Shown: piece after piece, positions 10,487-56,694 of the stretch
Layout of the letters: the number at the start of each line of letters is the position of its first letter
Position numbering within the stretch: the stretch's first letter is position 1
From: Lewinella sp. IMCC34183
Lineage (GTDB): Bacteria > Bacteroidota > Bacteroidia > Chitinophagales > Saprospiraceae
Reading direction: 5' to 3'
Assembly: GCF_003390915.1 (NCBI RefSeq)
Contig: NZ_QMEM01000004.1
Span: 186,001 to 250,000, forward strand
DNA: 64,000 nucleotides
Notes under the pieces: model-generated
Databases searched by the model: none
The model's input: the letters and a program-made list of their open reading frames with translations, nothing else
What the model was told of the DNA's origin: nothing
Position numbers and translations under genes: made by a program

Positions 10487-12305
10487 ACGCACCCACAAGA
10501 CCGTCCTGCAGTACGTCGGCCTGGGACTGTTCGCGATCAGCCTGGTGATCTTCACCGCGATGCTCGGGCTCGACAACTACCGCTTCGACGCGGAGATGCT
10601 GACGGCCCCCTTCGATTCGGAGGTCCACCAGGAAGCCCTGCGGCAGGCCGCCGAAGAAAACGGGCTGTTCGAGCAGACCTACGCGACCACCTTTTCGGGG
10701 ATGAGCGCGCTGCAGGAGACCTTCCGCGACGCCCAGCGGATCGTCAACGCCGATATCGACGCCAACGGCGTACCCGAGGGCAAGCAACGCTGGGAAGTAG
10801 AGCTGCCCGACTGGCAGTTCAAGAGCCAGCGGGTGACCTGGCTCAAGGCGGCGGCTACCGGGCCGGTGGAGCGCAACCCCTGGCTGTGGTTCTGCCTGAC
10901 CATCGGGCTGGGTACCCTGGGGGGCATCCTGTACATGATACCCAAGTTTCGGGGCCACGCCGGCATCAAGAACGACCACATCTACCACAGCTCACTGACG
11001 CGGGGCTTGCACTACGACTGGCGCGACCTCTTCCTGTGGGGGGCGGTGATCGGCATCATCGTCTACGGCTTCTGGTACATGGACAAGCAGTGGTTCTGGC
11101 CGGCGGTATCGCTGCTTATTACGGCGGTGATCGTGTGCCTGGTCTTCTTCGTAGAGAAATCACGCGGGCGGAATATCCGCGACGCCGGGCCGGATACACT
11201 GAGCGCCTACTTCGGCATCCTGGCGGGGATCTACTTCATGTTCTTCTACGTCCTCCTGTACTGGGCGAACCAACACGTAGTGGCCTGGGTGGAGATGGTC
11301 GACCCGCTGAGCCGCATGCTGAGTGGCGGCGAGGCGAGCCAGTGGTTCCTGTACGGACTGATGTACACCCTCATCATCCTGGTGATGGGCGTGCGGATGT
11401 TTGCCAAGTACCGCCACAACAAGTACCAGCTGCTGCGGACGGGCTCGGTGATGTTCTTCCAGACGGCCTTCGCCTTCCTAATCCCCGAGATCCTGGTGGC
11501 GCTCAACAAGCCGTGGTACGACTTCAAGGACATCTGGCCGCTCAACTACGACTTCTTTTTCGGCTGGCAGCTTGACCAGTTCCAGAGTGCGGGGGCCATC
11601 GGCATCTTCATGCTGGTGTGGGGCATCCTGCTCATCATCGTGGGCGTGCCGCTGATGGTCCATTTCCTGGGCAAGCGGTGGTACTGTAGCTGGGTGTGCG
11701 GCTGTGGCGGACTGGCCGAAACCATGGGCGACCCCTGGCGGCAGCTCAGCGACAAGAGCCTGCGGGCCTGGAAATTCGAGCGCTGGATCATCCACGGCGT
11801 ACTGGTGGCGGCCATCGTGATGACGGCGATGACGCTGTACACCTACTTCACCGGGGCGAACGAGATCCTCGGTCTGCAGACGGGCAACGTACAGCAGTGG
11901 TACGGCTTCCTGATCGGGGCGGGCTTCGCGGGTGTGGTGGGTACCGGCTTCTACCCGCTCATGGGCAATCGCGTGTGGTGCCGCTTCGGCTGCCCGCTGG
12001 CCGCTTACCTGGGCCTGGTCCAGCGCTTCCAGAGCCGCTTCCGCATCACCACCAACGGCGGACAGTGCATCAGCTGCGGCAACTGCTCCACCTACTGCGA
12101 GATGGGCATCGACGTGCGCGCCTACGCCCAGAAGGGACAGGATATCGTGCGGGCCAGTTGCGTGGGCTGCGGGGTGTGCGCGGCCGTATGTCCCCGTGGT
12201 GTGCTCCGGCTGGAGAACTCCGGGGTGGACGCGGGCTACCGGACGGTGCCGGAGCGGGTGATTCACGTTAGTGAGGAAGAGGGGGTGCGGTTGGTTAACG
12301 CTTGA
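10476..12305 (+). CDS. Polytopic membrane 4Fe-4S protein (NosR/NapH-like polyferredoxin)
   Basis: A 609-residue integral membrane protein with many hydrophobic helices and a C-terminal ferredoxin module. Two ferredoxin-type clusters are visible: Cys531/534/537/541 (CISCGNCSTYC) and Cys562/565/568/572 (CVGCGVCAAVCP). Before them, CSWVCGCGG (Cys404/408/410) and CRFGCPL (Cys502/506) match the cysteine motifs of NosR/NapH-type membrane proteins. Residues 55-130 are a soluble loop. Overlap with the flavoprotein gene suggests NAD(P)H to FAD to FeS to membrane electron flow. It differs from CcoG, which is shorter. The physiological acceptor is not evident; no nos or nap genes are nearby. Confidence 0.82.
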   Translation: MSDKRTHKTVLQYVGLGLFAISLVIFTAMLGLDNYRFDAEMLTAPFDSEVHQEALRQAAEENGLFEQTYATTFSGMSALQETFRDAQRIVNADIDANGVPEGKQRWEVELPDWQFKSQRVTWLKAAATGPVERNPWLWFCLTIGLGTLGGILYMIPKFRGHAGIKNDHIYHSSLTRGLHYDWRDLFLWGAVIGIIVYGFWYMDKQWFWPAVSLLITAVIVCLVFFVEKSRGRNIRDAGPDTLSAYFGILAGIYFMFFYVLLYWANQHVVAWVEMVDPLSRMLSGGEASQWFLYGLMYTLIILVMGVRMFAKYRHNKYQLLRTGSVMFFQTAFAFLIPEILVALNKPWYDFKDIWPLNYDFFFGWQLDQFQSAGAIGIFMLVWGILLIIVGVPLMVHFLGKRWYCSWVCGCGGLAETMGDPWRQLSDKSLRAWKFERWIIHGVLVAAIVMTAMTLYTYFTGANEILGLQTGNVQQWYGFLIGAGFAGVVGTGFYPLMGNRVWCRFGCPLAAYLGLVQRFQSRFRITTNGGQCISCGNCSTYCEMGIDVRAYAQKGQDIVRASCVGCGVCAAVCPRGVLRLENSGVDAGYRTVPERVIHVSEEEGVRLVNA

Positions 12306-12310
12306 TCTGA

Positions 12311-13012
12311 CGTTATGGATCGCACCAGAGGTGATTACCCCGCGCATGGGTTGAGGACCTCCGGTCCGATCGGCACCAAAACCTGGCCGCATGGATCGCA
12401 CCAGAGGTGCTCAACCCGTGGTTAAATCGCACCGGAGGTGATTAGCTCGTGGCTACCCGGAACACGGGTGGAGGACCTCCGGTCCGATCGGCACCAAAAC
12501 CTGGCCGCATGGATCGCACCAGAGGTGCTCAACCCGTGGTTGAATCGCACCGGAGGTGATTAGCTCGTGGCTACCCGGAACACGGGTGGAGGACCTCCGG
12601 TCCGATCGGCACCAAAACCTGGCCGCATGGATCGCACCAGAGGTGCTCAACCCGTGGTTAAATCGCACCGGAGATGATTAGCTCGTGGCTACCCGGCACA
12701 CGGGTGGAGGACCTCCGGTCCGATCGATACCAAAACCTTGCCGCATGGATCGCACCAGAGGTGCTCAACCCGTGGTTAAATCGCACCGGAGGTGATTAGC
12801 TCGTGGCTACCCGGCACACGGGTGGAGGACCTCCGGTCCGATCGATACCAAGACCTGGCCGCATGGATCGCACCAGAGGTGCTCAACCCGTGGTTAAATC
12901 GCACCAGAACTGATTAGCTCGTGGCTACCCGGCACACGGGTGGAGGACCTCCGGTCCGATCGGCACCAAGACCTGGCCGCATGGATCGCACCAGAGGTGC
13001 TCAACCCGTGGC
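12311..13012 (+). repeat. 118-bp tandem repeat array built from three hairpin elements per unit
   Basis: Units begin at 12391, 12509, 12627, 12745, 12863 and 12981 with exact 118-bp spacing; a divergent partial unit leads in from about 12311 and the last is cut at about 13012. Each unit holds three versions of one ~28-bp element: A (GATCGCACCAGAGGTGC...), B (AATCGCACCGGAGGTGA...) and C, which is the same element inverted. Their cores are small hairpins: GCACC-AGA-GGTGC, CACC-GGA-GGTG and GGACC-TCC-GGTCC. The 118-bp period is not a multiple of three, so coding is excluded. It fills the space between the FeS protein and the ThuA gene. Confidence 0.95.
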
Positions 13013-13108
13013 GCAAATTTCCCGGCAAGCAGTTACCTTATCACTTCATAGCGCATTTACCATCAACGGACCGGATGCCCCGTCGCGCCGACCGTTCAAT
13101 CATCGATT

Positions 13109-14059
13109 GTGCAACGTGTCACTATCCTATTTCCTCTAATCATGGCACTCTCCCTTGCAGCTTCCGCCCAGACCAAGGTGCTCATCGTGGATGGCCAGAA
13201 CAACCACGTGGTGTGGCCAAAGACCACCATCATGATGAAGCAGTACCTCGAGGATACCGGGCTCTTCACCGTCGATATTGCCCGCAGCGCCTTCACCTGG
13301 AACGCACAGGAGGAGGCCGACTATTTGCCGCTGGCCGGGGTGGGCGCTACCGAGAACCTGAATGAGCCCAAGTCCGATCCGGACTTCCGCCCCGACTTCG
13401 CGGCCTACGACGTCGTCGTCTCCAATTTCGGGTGGAAGGCAGCCCCCTGGCCCGAAGCAACGCGGGCGGCTTTCGAGCAATACGTGCGCCAGGGTGGCGG
13501 CTTCGTTTCTGTCCACGCCGCCGACAACTCCTTTCCCGAGTGGGCGGCGTACAACGAGATGATCGGCCTGGGCGGCTGGGCAGACCGCGACGAAAGCAAC
13601 GGCCCCTACTTGTACTACGACAACTACGGCAAGCTGGTGCGCGACACCACGCCGGGCCGGGCAGGCATCCACGGTGCCCAGCACGAGTTTCCGATCACCA
13701 TTCGTGAGAAGGACCACCCCATCACCCGGGGCATGCCCGAAACCTGGATGACCACCTCCGACGAATGCTACGCCATGCTGCGCGGCCCCGCCGAAAACCT
13801 GACCGTGCTGGCCACCGGCAAGGACCTGTCCGAGACCGCCCCCACCGACCGCCACGAGCCGATGCTGATGGTGCTTACCTACGGGGACGGGCGGATTTTC
13901 CACACTACTCTCGGTCACGATACCGAGTCGATGGAGGGCGTAGGCTTCATTACCTCCTTCCTGCGGGGCGTGGAGTGGGCGGCTACGGGGGAAGTCTCCC
14001 AGGAAATCCCCAACGACTTCCCTACCGCCGACGAAGCCACCAGTCGCCCCCACAACTAA
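13109..14059 (+). CDS. Secreted ThuA-domain protein
   Basis: A 316-residue protein of the ThuA family (PF06283, a glutamine-amidotransferase-like fold tied to sugar metabolism such as trehalose utilisation). I use the GTG at 13109 because it yields a full signal peptide (MQRVTILFPLIMALSLAASAQ); the first ATG at 13142 would leave only ten residues of it. Family features are KVLIVDGQNNH near the start, GGGFVSVHAADNSF around residue 130 and the later GRIFHTTLGHD. Substrate is unknown. Hairpin arrays lie on both sides of the gene (12311-13012 and 14063-14152). Confidence 0.87.
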   Translation: MQRVTILFPLIMALSLAASAQTKVLIVDGQNNHVVWPKTTIMMKQYLEDTGLFTVDIARSAFTWNAQEEADYLPLAGVGATENLNEPKSDPDFRPDFAAYDVVVSNFGWKAAPWPEATRAAFEQYVRQGGGFVSVHAADNSFPEWAAYNEMIGLGGWADRDESNGPYLYYDNYGKLVRDTTPGRAGIHGAQHEFPITIREKDHPITRGMPETWMTTSDECYAMLRGPAENLTVLATGKDLSETAPTDRHEPMLMVLTYGDGRIFHTTLGHDTESMEGVGFITSFLRGVEWAATGEVSQEIPNDFPTADEATSRPHN

Positions 14060-14062
14060 AAC

Positions 14063-14152
14063 ACGGTTTCCAACCGCGATGTAAAAGGCGGTTTTCAACC
14101 GCGGTGTAAAATGCGGTCTCCGACCGCGCCGTTCGAAGCATTTTCCAAATGC
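14063..14152 (+). repeat. Four 25-bp-spaced hairpins with three-base loops
   Basis: Hairpins at 14064-14076 (CGGTT-TCC-AACCG), 14088-14102 (GCGGTT-TTC-AACCGC), 14113-14127 (GCGGTC-TCC-GACCGC) and 14138-14152 (GCATTT-TCC-AAATGC) recur with a 25-base period. Stem sequences change but pairing is kept, while the loop stays TCC/TTC. It begins immediately after the ThuA stop codon. Confidence 0.85.
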
Positions 14153-14259
14153 GACGTCGCTCCCCCAGACCGCTCGGGACCGCCACAGTAGTACCCAGTG
14201 ACCTCACGACTGCTCTGAAGCGGTCATAAACTAGCGCCCACCACCAGGCTGCCAGGCAT

Positions 14260-14297
14260 AAAAAGCGGGCGCCGCAGGTATAACCCGCGACGCCCGT
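14260..14297 (-). terminator. Rho-independent terminator of katE
   Basis: Read on the minus strand, CGGGCG pairs with CGCCCG, and an inner CGCGGG with CCTGCG around a TTATA loop; CTTTTT follows. It lies about 30 bp past the katE stop. Confidence 0.85.
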
Positions 14298-14328
14298 CTG
14301 ATTCAAACTTCCTGTTGACGATCTTGGG

Positions 14329-16497
14329 TTACGCCGGGACCATCTTGGCCACCTCCATCCGGTCGTAATTCCGGTGCTGGGCGATGGCGTCGATGAGTTC
14401 CTGGGGCTTACCATCCACGAAGACGGCCTTATCGTCGTCCATGTATTCCCCGACGTGGGTGGCTTCAAGGAGCTGGACACCCTCGTTGGCAACGGCGATG
14501 GCCTTGCAGTGCATGAAGGCCTCGTCGACGAACTTTTTGTACTTGGCCTTCTTCATCAGGGCGTCCAGTGACTTTTGTCCGCCGGGGATGAAGACGGCGT
14601 CGAAGAGCACGCTCTCCGTCATCATGATACCGGAGAATACCTCGTGCTCATCGCCTTTATCGCACTTGATGGTGCCGCCGTGGGGCGCAACGATCTTCAG
14701 CACGGCGTTTTCGGCCTTCAGCGCCTCCATGAAGGGCTTTAGGTCGGCACCGTGGAAGCCGTCGGCCGCCAGAATGGCGATCTGCCGGGTAGCGATGCCC
14801 TTACCCATGCGGTGGGTCAGGCTCAGGGCGGCGGATTTCTCGAGGTAGATTTTCTTCTTAGGGGGCTGCATCTGCTCCACGTCGGCGTCGGCGCTGATGG
14901 CCTGGTTGACGGGCCCGTCTACGCTGTCGGGTACTTCCAGGCCGAGGCCTTCGGCTACCTTCATCGCGAGGTCCTCGTCGATCTGGCTGATCTGGTAGAG
15001 CATCCGCTCCTGCACGTGCTGGTAGGTACACTTGCCCAGCTCAAAGGTGTAGGCATCGGCCGTATGCGCTTTCTCCCAGTCGGTGAGGCTGCGGTAAAAG
15101 AGCGCGGGCTGGCTATAGTAGTCGACAAAGCTCTCGCTGCGGGCGCGAATCTTGTTGCCGTCGATGCGCTCGGTGTAGGATTCGAAGGCACCCTCCTTCA
15201 TCGAGGTGAGGAAGGGACAGCCGCCGCCAAGGGTATTCGGGAAGTAGGCGGTCTTTCCCTTGGGGATCGACATTTGCATGTGGCCGTCGCGCTGGTCGTT
15301 GTGGGCATTGGCCAGGGTGCGGTTGATGGGGATCTGCTCGAAGTTGACGCTGCCCAGGCGGCTCAGCTGCGTATCGCGGTAGCTGAACAGGCGGCCCTGC
15401 AGCAGCGGGTCGTTAGAAAAGTCCAGGCCCGGTACCATGTGAGTGGGCAGGAAGGCGACCTGCTCGGTTTCGGCGAAGAAGTTATCGGGGTTCCGGTTGA
15501 GGGTCATCTTCCCGACGACCTTCAGGGGCACCATTTCCTCGGGAATGAGCTTGGTGGCGTCCAGCAGGTCAAAGTCGAACTTATGTTCGTCTTCCTCGGG
15601 GATGATCTGCAGGCCCAGTTCCCACTCGGGGTACTGGCCGGTGTCGATGGCGTCCCAGAGGTCGCGGCGGTGGAAATCGGGATCGGCGCCGTTGATCTTT
15701 ACGGCCTCGTCCCAGGTCACGGAGTGGGTACCCTGCACCGGGTTCCAGTGGAAGCGGACGAAGTGGGCGACGCCCTCGTCGTTGATCATCCGGAAGGTGT
15801 GGATACCGAAGCCCTGCATCATGCGCAGGCTGCGGGGGATGCCGCGGTCGCTCATCACCCAGATGTGGTTGTGGAGCGCCTCGGGGGTCAGCGACACCCA
15901 GTCGTAGAAGGTATCGTGGGCCGATTGGGCCTGGGGGATCTCGCGGTCGGGTTCCGGCTTCACCGAGTGGATGAGGTCGGGGAACTTCATCGCGTCCTGA
16001 ATGAAGAAGATGGGAATGTCATTGCCGACGAGGTCCCACACCCCTTCTTCCGTGTAGAACTTGACGGCGAAACCGCGTACGTCACGGGCCAGGTCGGGCG
16101 ACCCCTTAGAGCCGGCTACGGTGGAGAAGCGGGTGAAGACCGGCGTTTTCCGGGAGGTGTCGTTGAAGATACCGGCCTTGGTAAACTGGGGAATGGCTTC
16201 GTAGAGCTCGAAAACGCCGTGTGCGGCGCTGCCGCGGGCGTGCACGATCCGCTCGGGGATGCGCTCGTGGTCGAAGTGGTTGATCTTTTCGCGGAGCCAG
16301 AAGTCTTCCAGCAGCGTTCCTCCGCGGATGCCCGCCTTGAGGGAGTTTCCGGCGTCATTAACCTTGAGACCGTTGTTGGTGGTCATGGGCTGGTCGGTGG
16401 CGTCGGTACGAAAGGCGTCCAGCGACTGCGACTTGGCGCCTTCGGACACGGAGCCGTTGCGGGAAGCGGAGCCGTTTCCATTTGCAGAAGTAGGCAT
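14329..16497 (-). CDS. katE: Large-subunit monofunctional catalase HPII
   Basis: A 722-residue heme catalase that disproportionates hydrogen peroxide. Length and the C-terminal flavodoxin/DJ-1-like domain (about 570-722, [13 protein letters not shown]) mark the large-subunit HPII clade. Catalytic His86 lies in [13 protein letters not shown], distal Asn159 in [11 protein letters not shown], and the proximal heme ligand Tyr373 in [14 protein letters not shown]. The N-terminal 40 residues are a polar, Asn/Ser-rich extension, as in E. coli HPII. It is divergent from katG across a 540-bp region, so the two peroxide-removing enzymes may be co-regulated; no clear OxyR or PerR site was identified by eye. 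Confidence 0.96.
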
Positions 16498-45639: not shown

Positions 45640-45680
45640 GGGTTGGGGCTGGCTGGTTGCTGGTTACGGGTTACGGGTTA

Positions 45681-46075
45681 GCGGAGGTCATCGGATGCGA
45701 GCCGAGTGCAGCGAGGCCTCATCTGATGTCCGGAGCGGGGGTGCGGGTTACGGGTTGCGGGTTGCGGGTTGCTGGTTACGGGTTAGCGGAGGTCATCGGA
45801 TGCGAGCCGAGTGCAGCGAGGCCTCATCTGATGTCCGGAGCGGGGGTGCGGGGGTGCGGGTTACGGGTTGCGGGGTGCGGGTTAGCGGAGGTCATCGGAT
45901 GCGAGCCGAGTGCAGCGAGGCCTCATCTGATGTCCGGAGCGGGGGTGCGGGTTACGGGTTACGGGTTACGGGTTACGGGTTGCGGGTTACGGGTTGCGGG
46001 TTACGGGTTAGCGGAGGTCATCGGATGCGAGCCGAGTGCAGCGAGGCCTCATCCGATGTCCGGAGCGAGGGTTGC
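45681..46075. repeat. Tandem array: four 60-bp palindromic cores separated by GGGTTAC/GGGTTGC heptads
   Basis: Cores starting GCGGAGGTCATCGGATGCGA at 45681, 45786, 45885 and 46011 each contain CATCGGATG facing CATCTGATG (copies 1-3) or CATCCGATG (copy 4), so pairing is kept. Between cores are variable runs of the heptamer GGGTTAC/GGGTTGC, giving irregular periods of 105, 99 and 126 bp. The array separates two divergent genes. Open frames through it are a by-product of the heptad period and composition. Confidence 0.92.
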
Positions 46076-46178
46076 GGGTAAGATGAGCGGTTGAAGAAAA
46101 TTGTTCAGGTGCGGGAGGGTAAACAATTGCCGGGGGCGGCGACCTTTACCGCAGAACCACCCGAAGCAGCCCCGGCCC

Positions 46179-56643: not shown

Positions 56644-56694
56644 CTAGCCAGGCGGACATCGGATGTCGGCGACATCCGATGTCCGCCTGGCTAG
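56644..56694. repeat. Perfect 24-bp inverted repeat with a 3-base loop
   Basis: CTAGCCAGGCGGACATCGGATGTC is followed by GGC and its exact reverse complement. The innermost ACATCGGATGT core matches the elements at 43071 and 45681-46075. The stop codon of the esterase gene lies inside the right arm. No T run follows. Confidence 0.95.

What the first reader, a model, noticed from the sequence alone, without database searches (positions are those of the whole stretch)
12311..14152. Hairpin arrays with a conserved three-base loop flank a secreted ThuA gene on both sides
Left array: 118-bp units each with GCACC-AGA-GGTGC, CACC-GGA-GGTG and GGACC-TCC-GGTCC. Right array: four hairpins at exact 25-bp spacing (starts about 14063, 14088, 14113, 14138) with loops TCC, TTC, TCC, TCC. 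On one strand or the other nearly all loops are TCC, or TCT/TTC, while stems differ between elements and stay paired (GCGGTT/AACCGC versus GCGGTC/GACCGC versus GCATTT/AAATGC). Changing stems with a fixed loop suggests selection for structure, either as RNA or as protein-bound DNA hairpins. I know no named element with this design.
Basis: seen in the sequence. Interest (0 to 1): 0.75.

Follow-up and report, generated by a model that had tools for sequence, protein, structure and literature searches.

The report
Two REP hairpin families with transposases
The hairpin arrays on either side of this ThuA gene are copies of two scattered families of short DNA hairpins, each of which also surrounds its own small transposase-like gene elsewhere in the genome, so they look like an unusual short-stemmed form of known bacterial REP elements rather than a ThuA-specific signal.

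Summary
The hairpins are real, and both arrays belong to genome-wide repeat families. In this draft genome (Neolewinella/Lewinella group) two Y1/HUH transposase genes were found. RAYT-A is flanked on both sides by left-array hairpins (GNNGA-5bp-TCC-5bp-GA, alternating orientation as in BIMEs); RAYT-B by right-array hairpins (GTANNAN-6bp-TCC-6bp, direct 25-26 bp spacing). Strict patterns find 93 and 111 copies (backward controls 1 and 6). At positions the patterns leave free, 88 of 93 and 87 of 100 printed copies pair perfectly, with 4 and 10 stem types. Of 60 genomes, the 9 with a clade-B RAYT have 8-111 right-type hits and the other 51 have 0-4. At the orthologous ThuA locus of one relative the right array persists, with both sides of the stem changed in three of four hairpins; other relatives have hairpins elsewhere or none nearby. 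These are REP elements in the broad sense, mobilised now or formerly by RAYT/TnpA-REP proteins; ThuA is a bystander. Stems of 5-6 bp and non-GT[AG]G heads make them a variant of a known kind. The loop is constant only within a lineage; relatives use TCA, TGT, TAT and others. Movement itself is inferred, not shown.

The parts
12315..13011 (.). Left array: tandem BIME-like block, 118-bp unit holding REP-A copies in both orientations
12348..12370 (+). REP-A, + orientation (GGGTTGA-GGACC-TCC-GGTCC-GAT), first of six; the other five (12466, 12584, 12702, 12820, 12938) have head GGGTGGA
12395..12417 (-). REP-A, - orientation (GGGTTGA-GCACC-TCT-GGTGC-GAT), first of six (then every 118 bp to 12985-13007)
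12426..12440 (-). Third, decayed REP-A-like hairpin of the unit (4-bp CACC stem); paired in 3 of 5 units
13109..14059 (+). ThuA-domain protein gene (PF06283), bystander
14064..14152 (+). Right array: four REP-B hairpins at 25-bp period, between the convergent ThuA and catalase genes; only the third fits the strict REP-B pattern
   Evidence: corresponding array in L172
57576..57597 (-). A further isolated REP-B copy in the window (GTACGAT-GCGGTT-TCC-GACCGC, innermost pair T-G)
   Evidence: (C52:243576)

Best explanation
Both arrays are repetitive extragenic palindrome (REP) elements in the broad sense: short hairpins that are substrates of RAYT/TnpA-REP, HUH-tyrosine transposase-like proteins of the IS200/IS605 superfamily. 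The left array consists of REP-A, cognate to RAYT-A (contig C34); the right array of REP-B, cognate to RAYT-B (contig C50). Likely mechanism: a REP made single-stranded, for example during replication, folds; the RAYT recognises the 5' head and the loop, needs a paired stem but tolerates many stem sequences, cleaves next to it and helps copy or move it. Arrays then grow by tandem duplication of units with one or a few REPs (periods 25-26, 85, 97, 111, 118, 138, 174 bp in this genome). Shown here: linkage to the two RAYT genes, dispersal, paired stem variation, co-occurrence of REP-B with its RAYT clade, and a match between hairpin format and RAYT tree. Inferred: folding in the cell, recognition, cleavage, movement and the amplification route.
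For: Two Y1_Tnp genes found in G000 (the same two). RAYT-A has 11 perfect REP-A hairpins within 0.5 kb, on both sides; the 5 perfect + copies are GGACC, the 6 perfect - copies GGGCC, and neighbours largely alternate in orientation. RAYT-B has REP-B hairpins on both sides, loops TCC or TCCC. Both proteins pass the Pfam Y1_Tnp cut-off, have REP_Tyr_transpos as best NCBIfam model, and TnpA-REP 4er8 as the only PDB match (E 0.006 single, 0.0019 profile). 93 and 111 copies against controls 1 and 6; free pairs perfect in 88 of 93 and 87 of 100. In 1-kb flanks of 48 RAYTs of the main group: 414 hairpins against 102.8 in shuffles, 273 mutually related against 0, at least 3 related at 33 of 48 loci (tandem duplication inflates the counts). 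Hairpin format A or B needs 1 change on the RAYT tree (31 or 28 rows scored) or 2 (34 rows, all uncertain labels kept), shuffles at least 3-4. REP-B tracks clade-B RAYT in 9 of 9 genomes, 0 of 51 others above 4 hits. Right array present downstream of the G001 orthologue with T-A/C-G differences on both sides of the stem in three hairpins.
Against: NCBIfam scores (61 and 48.9 bits) are below that model's cut-off of 80. Heads are not GT[AG]G, and in the Stenotrophomonas enzyme the head variants GTTG and GTAC, which resemble those of REP-A and REP-B, abolished cleavage, so these RAYTs would have to read the head differently. Stems are 5-6 bp, below the 7 bp used in a published REP search (passage). 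REP-B raw counts in G017 (8) and G013 (12) are near the largest backward control in any genome (8); the perfect-pairing check separates them. REP-A co-occurrence is not one-to-one: G008 (490-contig draft) has 12 REP-A and only a cut RAYT of another branch; G017 has a RAYT close to RAYT-A but 4-nt loops and no strict hit. L086 (G009), inside clade B, is flanked by a different hairpin (TTAGA-CCGCT-TTC), although its genome has 16 REP-B hits. 13 of 60 RAYT loci showed no related hairpins by my criterion. No activity was tested.
Confidence: 0.92

Rival explanations
1. The hairpins are RNA elements (terminators, mRNA stabilisers or a regulatory array) selected for controlling ThuA and its neighbours.
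For: The right array sits just after the ThuA stop between convergent genes; two of its hairpins read on the - strand are followed by T-rich stretches (14078-14062, 14102-14088), part of 5 terminator-like sites in 12300-14400 against 1.8 (sd 1.6) in shuffles.
Against: The same families occur at dozens of other loci and around two transposase genes; orthologous ThuA genes carry hairpins upstream, of another family, or none in the stretches read; no Rfam family at gathering score in the window. A secondary RNA role of the right array is not excluded.
Confidence: 0.05
2. Ancient REPs now kept by the host for another job (nucleoid protein or gyrase binding, supercoiling, mRNA protection), RAYT linkage being a relic.
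For: One gene per RAYT lineage in G000, as expected of domesticated transposases (passage of PMC8049555); the right array lies at the same place in G000 and G001 with pairing kept.
Against: REP-B is at background in the 51 genomes without a clade-B RAYT, with 0 perfect hairpins among 47 printed hits, which suggests upkeep depends on the RAYT; both G000 RAYT frames are open with HUH and Tyr present.
Confidence: 0.12
3. Coincidental tandem repeats with no transposase link.
For: The left array is a plain 118-bp tandem array.
Against: Pattern excess over controls, RAYT linkage, and hairpin format following the RAYT tree.
Confidence: 0.01

Closest known systems
Group 3 REPtron of Stenotrophomonas maltophilia (REP-Sm; group 3 = subclass 2.5)
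   Same: Perfect stem, 3-nt loop, 5' head; one loop base is critical, stem mismatches harm cleavage, paired stem changes have modest effects (PMC8266576, sections 17 and part 1 of 23 read)
   Different: 8-bp stem and GTAG head there, and GTTG or GTAC heads abolish its cleavage; 5-6-bp stems and GNNGA or GTA(C/A/G) heads here. Protein motifs differ: NHVH and YVLNNP here, DH[LF]H and YI[VI]ANP in subclass 2.5 (table passage)
Subclass 2.6 (Bertels group 5) TnpA-REP of Bacteroidetes
   Same: Same phylum; genes flanked by atypical hairpins without GT[AG]G, copies elsewhere in the genome (PMC6006769, sections 13 and 25 read, other passages seen)
   Different: Published motifs WQ and YIH[QN]NP; here W then A or E in 42 of 48, and mostly YVLNNP or YILNNP. 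The hairpins of 2.6 are in figures and supplements I could not see, so identity with them is neither shown nor excluded
RAYT/REP/BIME systems of gammaproteobacteria, including E. coli
   Same: REP-rayt-REP organisation, BIMEs with alternating REPs, RAYT-REP coevolution and REP abundance following the rayt gene (abstract text and passages of PMC2817692)
   Different: GT(A/G)G head and imperfect palindromes there; perfect short stems and other heads here. That two stem versions alternate by orientation as E. coli Y and Z do is recalled, not looked up

Membership tests
REP element with RAYT (broad sense) | Short palindrome able to form a stem-loop, stem kept by paired change | tested here: met
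   88 of 93 and 87 of 100 at unselected positions; three hairpins changed on both stem sides between G000 and G001
REP element with RAYT (broad sense) | Many dispersed copies | tested here: met
   93 strict REP-A hits in 22 clusters; 111 strict REP-B hits; controls 1 and 6
REP element with RAYT (broad sense) | Flanks a HUH/Y1 tyrosine transposase gene on both sides | tested here: met
REP element with RAYT (broad sense) | Abundance goes with presence of the cognate RAYT | tested here: met
   REP-B: 9 of 9 against 0 of 51, relatedness of genomes not corrected for; REP-A only partly
REP element with RAYT (broad sense) | Extragenic location | tested here: inconclusive
   Between genes in the window; no systematic gene calls were made for the other copies
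REP element with RAYT (broad sense) | Cleavage or mobilisation by the RAYT | not testable with these tools
   needs biochemistry
GTAG-tagged REPs (canonical TnpA-REP subclasses) | GT[AG]G tetranucleotide at the foot | tested here: not met
   REP-A head GNTGA in G000 (T fixed by the pattern), mostly GTNGA-like in relatives with occasional GTAGA or GTGGA; REP-B GTA, then mostly C, A or G and a 3-nt spacer
RAYT / TnpA-REP protein family | HUH motif and catalytic tyrosine in a Y1_Tnp protein | tested here: met
   Pfam over cut-off; N-H-x-H in 60 of 60, Tyr in 58 of 60 aligned homologues
NCBIfam NF047646 REP_Tyr_transpos (equivalog) | Score over curated cut-off of 80 bits | tested here: not met
   61 and 48.9 bits
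TnpA-REP subclass 2.6 | Motifs NH[LIV]H, WQ, YIH[QN]NP | tested here: not met
   NHVH fits; WQ and YIH[QN]NP do not

The most novel reading that the evidence does not exclude
Neolewinella/Lewinella hosts a radiation of RAYTs (48 in one branch of the midpoint-rooted tree, from 20 of 21 sampled genomes of the genus), in which each lineage reads its own minimal hairpin: a short 5' foot plus a lineage-specific 3-4-nt loop form the address, while the 5-6-bp stem need only pair. This would be a RAYT subclass (W-A/W-E motif) with unusually short REPs, and a natural series of enzyme-hairpin pairs from which the recognition code could be read.
Probability: 0.35. Interest if true: 0.55.

Novelty: new variant of a known kind. 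Interest (0 to 1): 0.4.

Why it matters
It turns an apparently nameless hairpin array into a REP/RAYT system in a phylum whose REPs a published survey calls 'atypical'. It also supplies related enzyme-hairpin pairs (two in this genome, dozens across the genus) that differ in loop, stem and head, which could show what these domesticated single-strand transposases recognise.

Tried and rejected
ThuA-specific regulation: rejected because orthologues lack or relocate the hairpins in the stretches read and the families occur genome-wide. Known RNA family: no Rfam hit at gathering score in the window. A universally fixed TCC loop: rejected; TCA, TGT, TAT, TGC, TTT, TCCA and others occur at related RAYTs. 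Assignment to published subclass 2.6 or 2.4: left open, motifs do not fully match either. NCBIfam gave nothing for ThuA. PHROGs gave only weak hits, one named transposase and one of unknown function. Literature: searches of an open-access library; the lists were capped (20 of 778, 10 of 109, 20 of 1184, 10 of 18, 4 of 4) and the listed papers showed nothing on REPs of Lewinella or Saprospirales. I make no wider claim that these elements are unpublished.

Papers: PMC8266576 outline and abstract, section 17, part 1 of 2 of section 23. PMC6006769 sections 13 and 25 plus passages. PMC2817692, PMC3733652, PMC8049555 passages only. Others: search listings.

Rows dropped and choices made: hairpin-format labels for 60 RAYTs were written before the tree was seen, but which uncertain labels to count was chosen afterwards. 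One search scored 31 of 60 (three uncertain B kept, three uncertain A dropped: L086, L106, L110): 1 change. With all six uncertain labels as written, 34 rows, 2 changes (shuffles at least 4); with all six dropped, 28 rows, 1 change (shuffles at least 3). The remaining 26 rows had no related hairpin, another format or a cut end. One search's pairing check used only hits printed: 56 perfect of 65 in G009, G013, G017 and G018, 0 of 47 in 26 other genomes; hits of G001, G004, G007, G012 and some other genomes were not printed. One search used 100 of 111 REP-B hits. Alignments A1 and A2 hold rows picked as perfect hairpins and are not used as evidence of pairing.

Full report
Observation. The left array is a 118-bp tandem block (12336-13011, 5.7 copies, 96% matches), with six GGACC-TCC-GGTCC and six GCACC-AGA-GGTGC hairpins and a third, CACC-GGA-GGTG, intact in only 3 of 5 units. 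The right array has four hairpins whose loops start exactly 25 bp apart (14069, 14094, 14119, 14144). Read on one strand, the two main left-array hairpins are one element in two orientations: head GGGTTGA (GGGTGGA in five + copies), 5-bp stem, loop TCC or TCT, tail GAT (REP-A). The right-array hairpins resemble GTANNAN-[6 bp]-TCC-[6 bp] (REP-B), but only one of the four fits that strict pattern; the others have a TTC loop, a GTTCGAA head or a worn first copy.

Genome-wide test without selecting for pairing. A pattern fixing head, outer stem letters and tail of REP-A but leaving two pairs and the loop free finds 93 places in G000 (backward control 1). Both free pairs are Watson-Crick in 88 of 93, with four paired stem types, and the free loop is TCC in 65 and TCT in 14. 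A REP-B pattern that fixes the TCC loop and leaves four pairs free finds 111 places (control 6); of the 100 printed, 87 pair perfectly (92 with G-T), with ten perfectly paired stem types. Stems change while pairing is kept.

Link to transposases. Two Y1_Tnp genes were found in the draft genome (98% complete). RAYT-A (C34; L066 1620-2327) lies inside a largely alternating array of REP-A; one further + copy there is imperfect. RAYT-B (C50; L067 2160-2873, minus) lies between REP-B copies, including a direct array of about ten, most with a TCCC loop and some imperfect. The two proteins are 35% identical over 204 residues, match Y1_Tnp over the Pfam cut-off, have REP_Tyr_transpos as best NCBIfam model though below its cut-off, and their only PDB match at the thresholds used is TnpA-REP 4er8 (RAYT-A alone; ten-row profile). 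So each array flanking ThuA belongs to a hairpin family with its own transposase-like gene elsewhere.

Relatives. Homologues at E up to 1e-15 occur in 24 of 60 genomes, 20 of the 21 of the genus, counting G000. Many of the 60 genes found are flanked by lineage-specific hairpins of the same design. In 1-kb flanks of the 48 genes of the main branch there were 414 hairpins (102.8 in dinucleotide shuffles) and 273 mutually related ones (0 in shuffles), with at least three related at 33 of 48 loci; the 12 outer genes showed little (31 against 24.2, 5 related) for 3-nt loops. Tandem duplication inflates these counts. The format (A: 5 bp with GNNGA foot; B: 6 bp) needs one change on the tree for 31 scored rows and two if every uncertain label is kept; label shuffles need at least 3 or 4. 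Nine genomes hold a clade-B RAYT (support 100/99; one of the nine, L086, is flanked by another hairpin); they have 111, 87, 72, 71, 68, 29, 16, 12 and 8 REP-B hits. The other 51 have 0-4, with backward controls of 0-8 per genome over the set; none of 47 printed hits there is a perfect hairpin, against 56 of 65 in the four low-count clade-B genomes whose hits were printed. REP-A is less tidy: 93, 66, 19, 12 and 11 in five genomes and at most 2 elsewhere; G008 has REP-A without a complete cognate gene seen.

The ThuA locus in relatives. Of 21 genomes searched, 14 of them of the genus, G000 and five others have an orthologue at E up to 1e-60. In G001 (80% identical ThuA) a corresponding right array stands before the same catalase gene. 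Its last hairpin with spacer (GCCGTTCGAA-GCATTT-TCC-AAATGC) is identical; the other three, matched by order, each differ by one T-A/C-G exchange on both sides of the stem, the first also having a 4-nt loop. Upstream, G001 has three 140-bp units with a different hairpin (GGAGCTCCAGCTCC), the kind that flanks another RAYT of that genome, L109. In G007 REP-B hairpins stand upstream of ThuA instead; G005, G002 and G010 show no such array in the stretches printed, about 1 kb upstream and 0.6 kb downstream. This fits dispersed elements, not a ThuA control region.

Mechanism. TnpA-REP proteins cleave folded single-stranded REPs strand-specifically, with the 5' tetranucleotide and loop or bulge as recognition points; in S. 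maltophilia an 8-bp perfect stem with a 3-nt loop needs a particular loop base and intact pairing, while paired stem changes have modest effects (PMC8266576). Against a simple transfer, that enzyme lost cleavage with heads GTTG and GTAC, which resemble those found here, so the head must be read differently. Folding, cleavage and movement in this genus are inferred. RAYT-REP coevolution and REP abundance following the rayt gene were already reported for gammaproteobacteria (passages of PMC2817692).

Classification. I file the hairpins as REPs in the broad sense (palindromes cognate to a RAYT), not as GTAG-tagged REPs, whose head is not met. The proteins belong to the RAYT/TnpA-REP superfamily; their subclass is open, since the W motif is W-A or W-E in 42 of 48 and the tyrosine motif mostly YVLNNP or YILNNP, unlike the published 2.6 or 2.4 motifs (PMC6006769, sections 13 and 25 read, passages otherwise). 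That survey describes only 'atypical' hairpins for Bacteroidetes subclass 2.6 in the text I saw.

Limits. No gene calls were made for most copies, so 'extragenic' is not proven. Association counts ignore relatedness of the genomes. 'Secreted' for ThuA was not tested. No expression or biochemical data are available.

Noticed in passing
window 45655-46079, 56648-56690; G000-wide: A third dispersed palindrome family with core ACATC(C/G)GATGT, often as paired inverted cores (for example CACATCGGATGTCCGGGACATCCGATGTG): 79 matches of GGACATCSGATG in the genome, control 0 (one element can be hit twice). Fourteen stretches were read; no transposase link was examined.
   Followed up: partly
window 45655-46079: Tandem array of about 100-bp units separated by CGGGTTA heptamer runs, containing arms of the third palindrome.
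   Followed up: no
L071 (C30:27-900) and L076 (end of C32): An 85-bp tandem array of REP-A lies at the ends of two contigs with the same unit, so it probably caused an assembly break between C32 and C30.
   Followed up: no
L172 1011-1436 (G001): Three 140-bp tandem units of a different RAYT-class hairpin stand upstream of the ThuA orthologue, where the window has the left array.
   Followed up: partly
L099, L100, L131, L134, L135, L138: Outer RAYT-like branch (12 rows, mostly WQ motif) is flanked in several cases by hairpins with 4-nt loops (TTTA, TTCA, TTGA, CTTG), a second format.
   Followed up: no
window 14266-14296: Strong terminator-like hairpin on the minus strand (14 pairs) between the right array and the 3' end of the catalase gene.
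   Followed up: no
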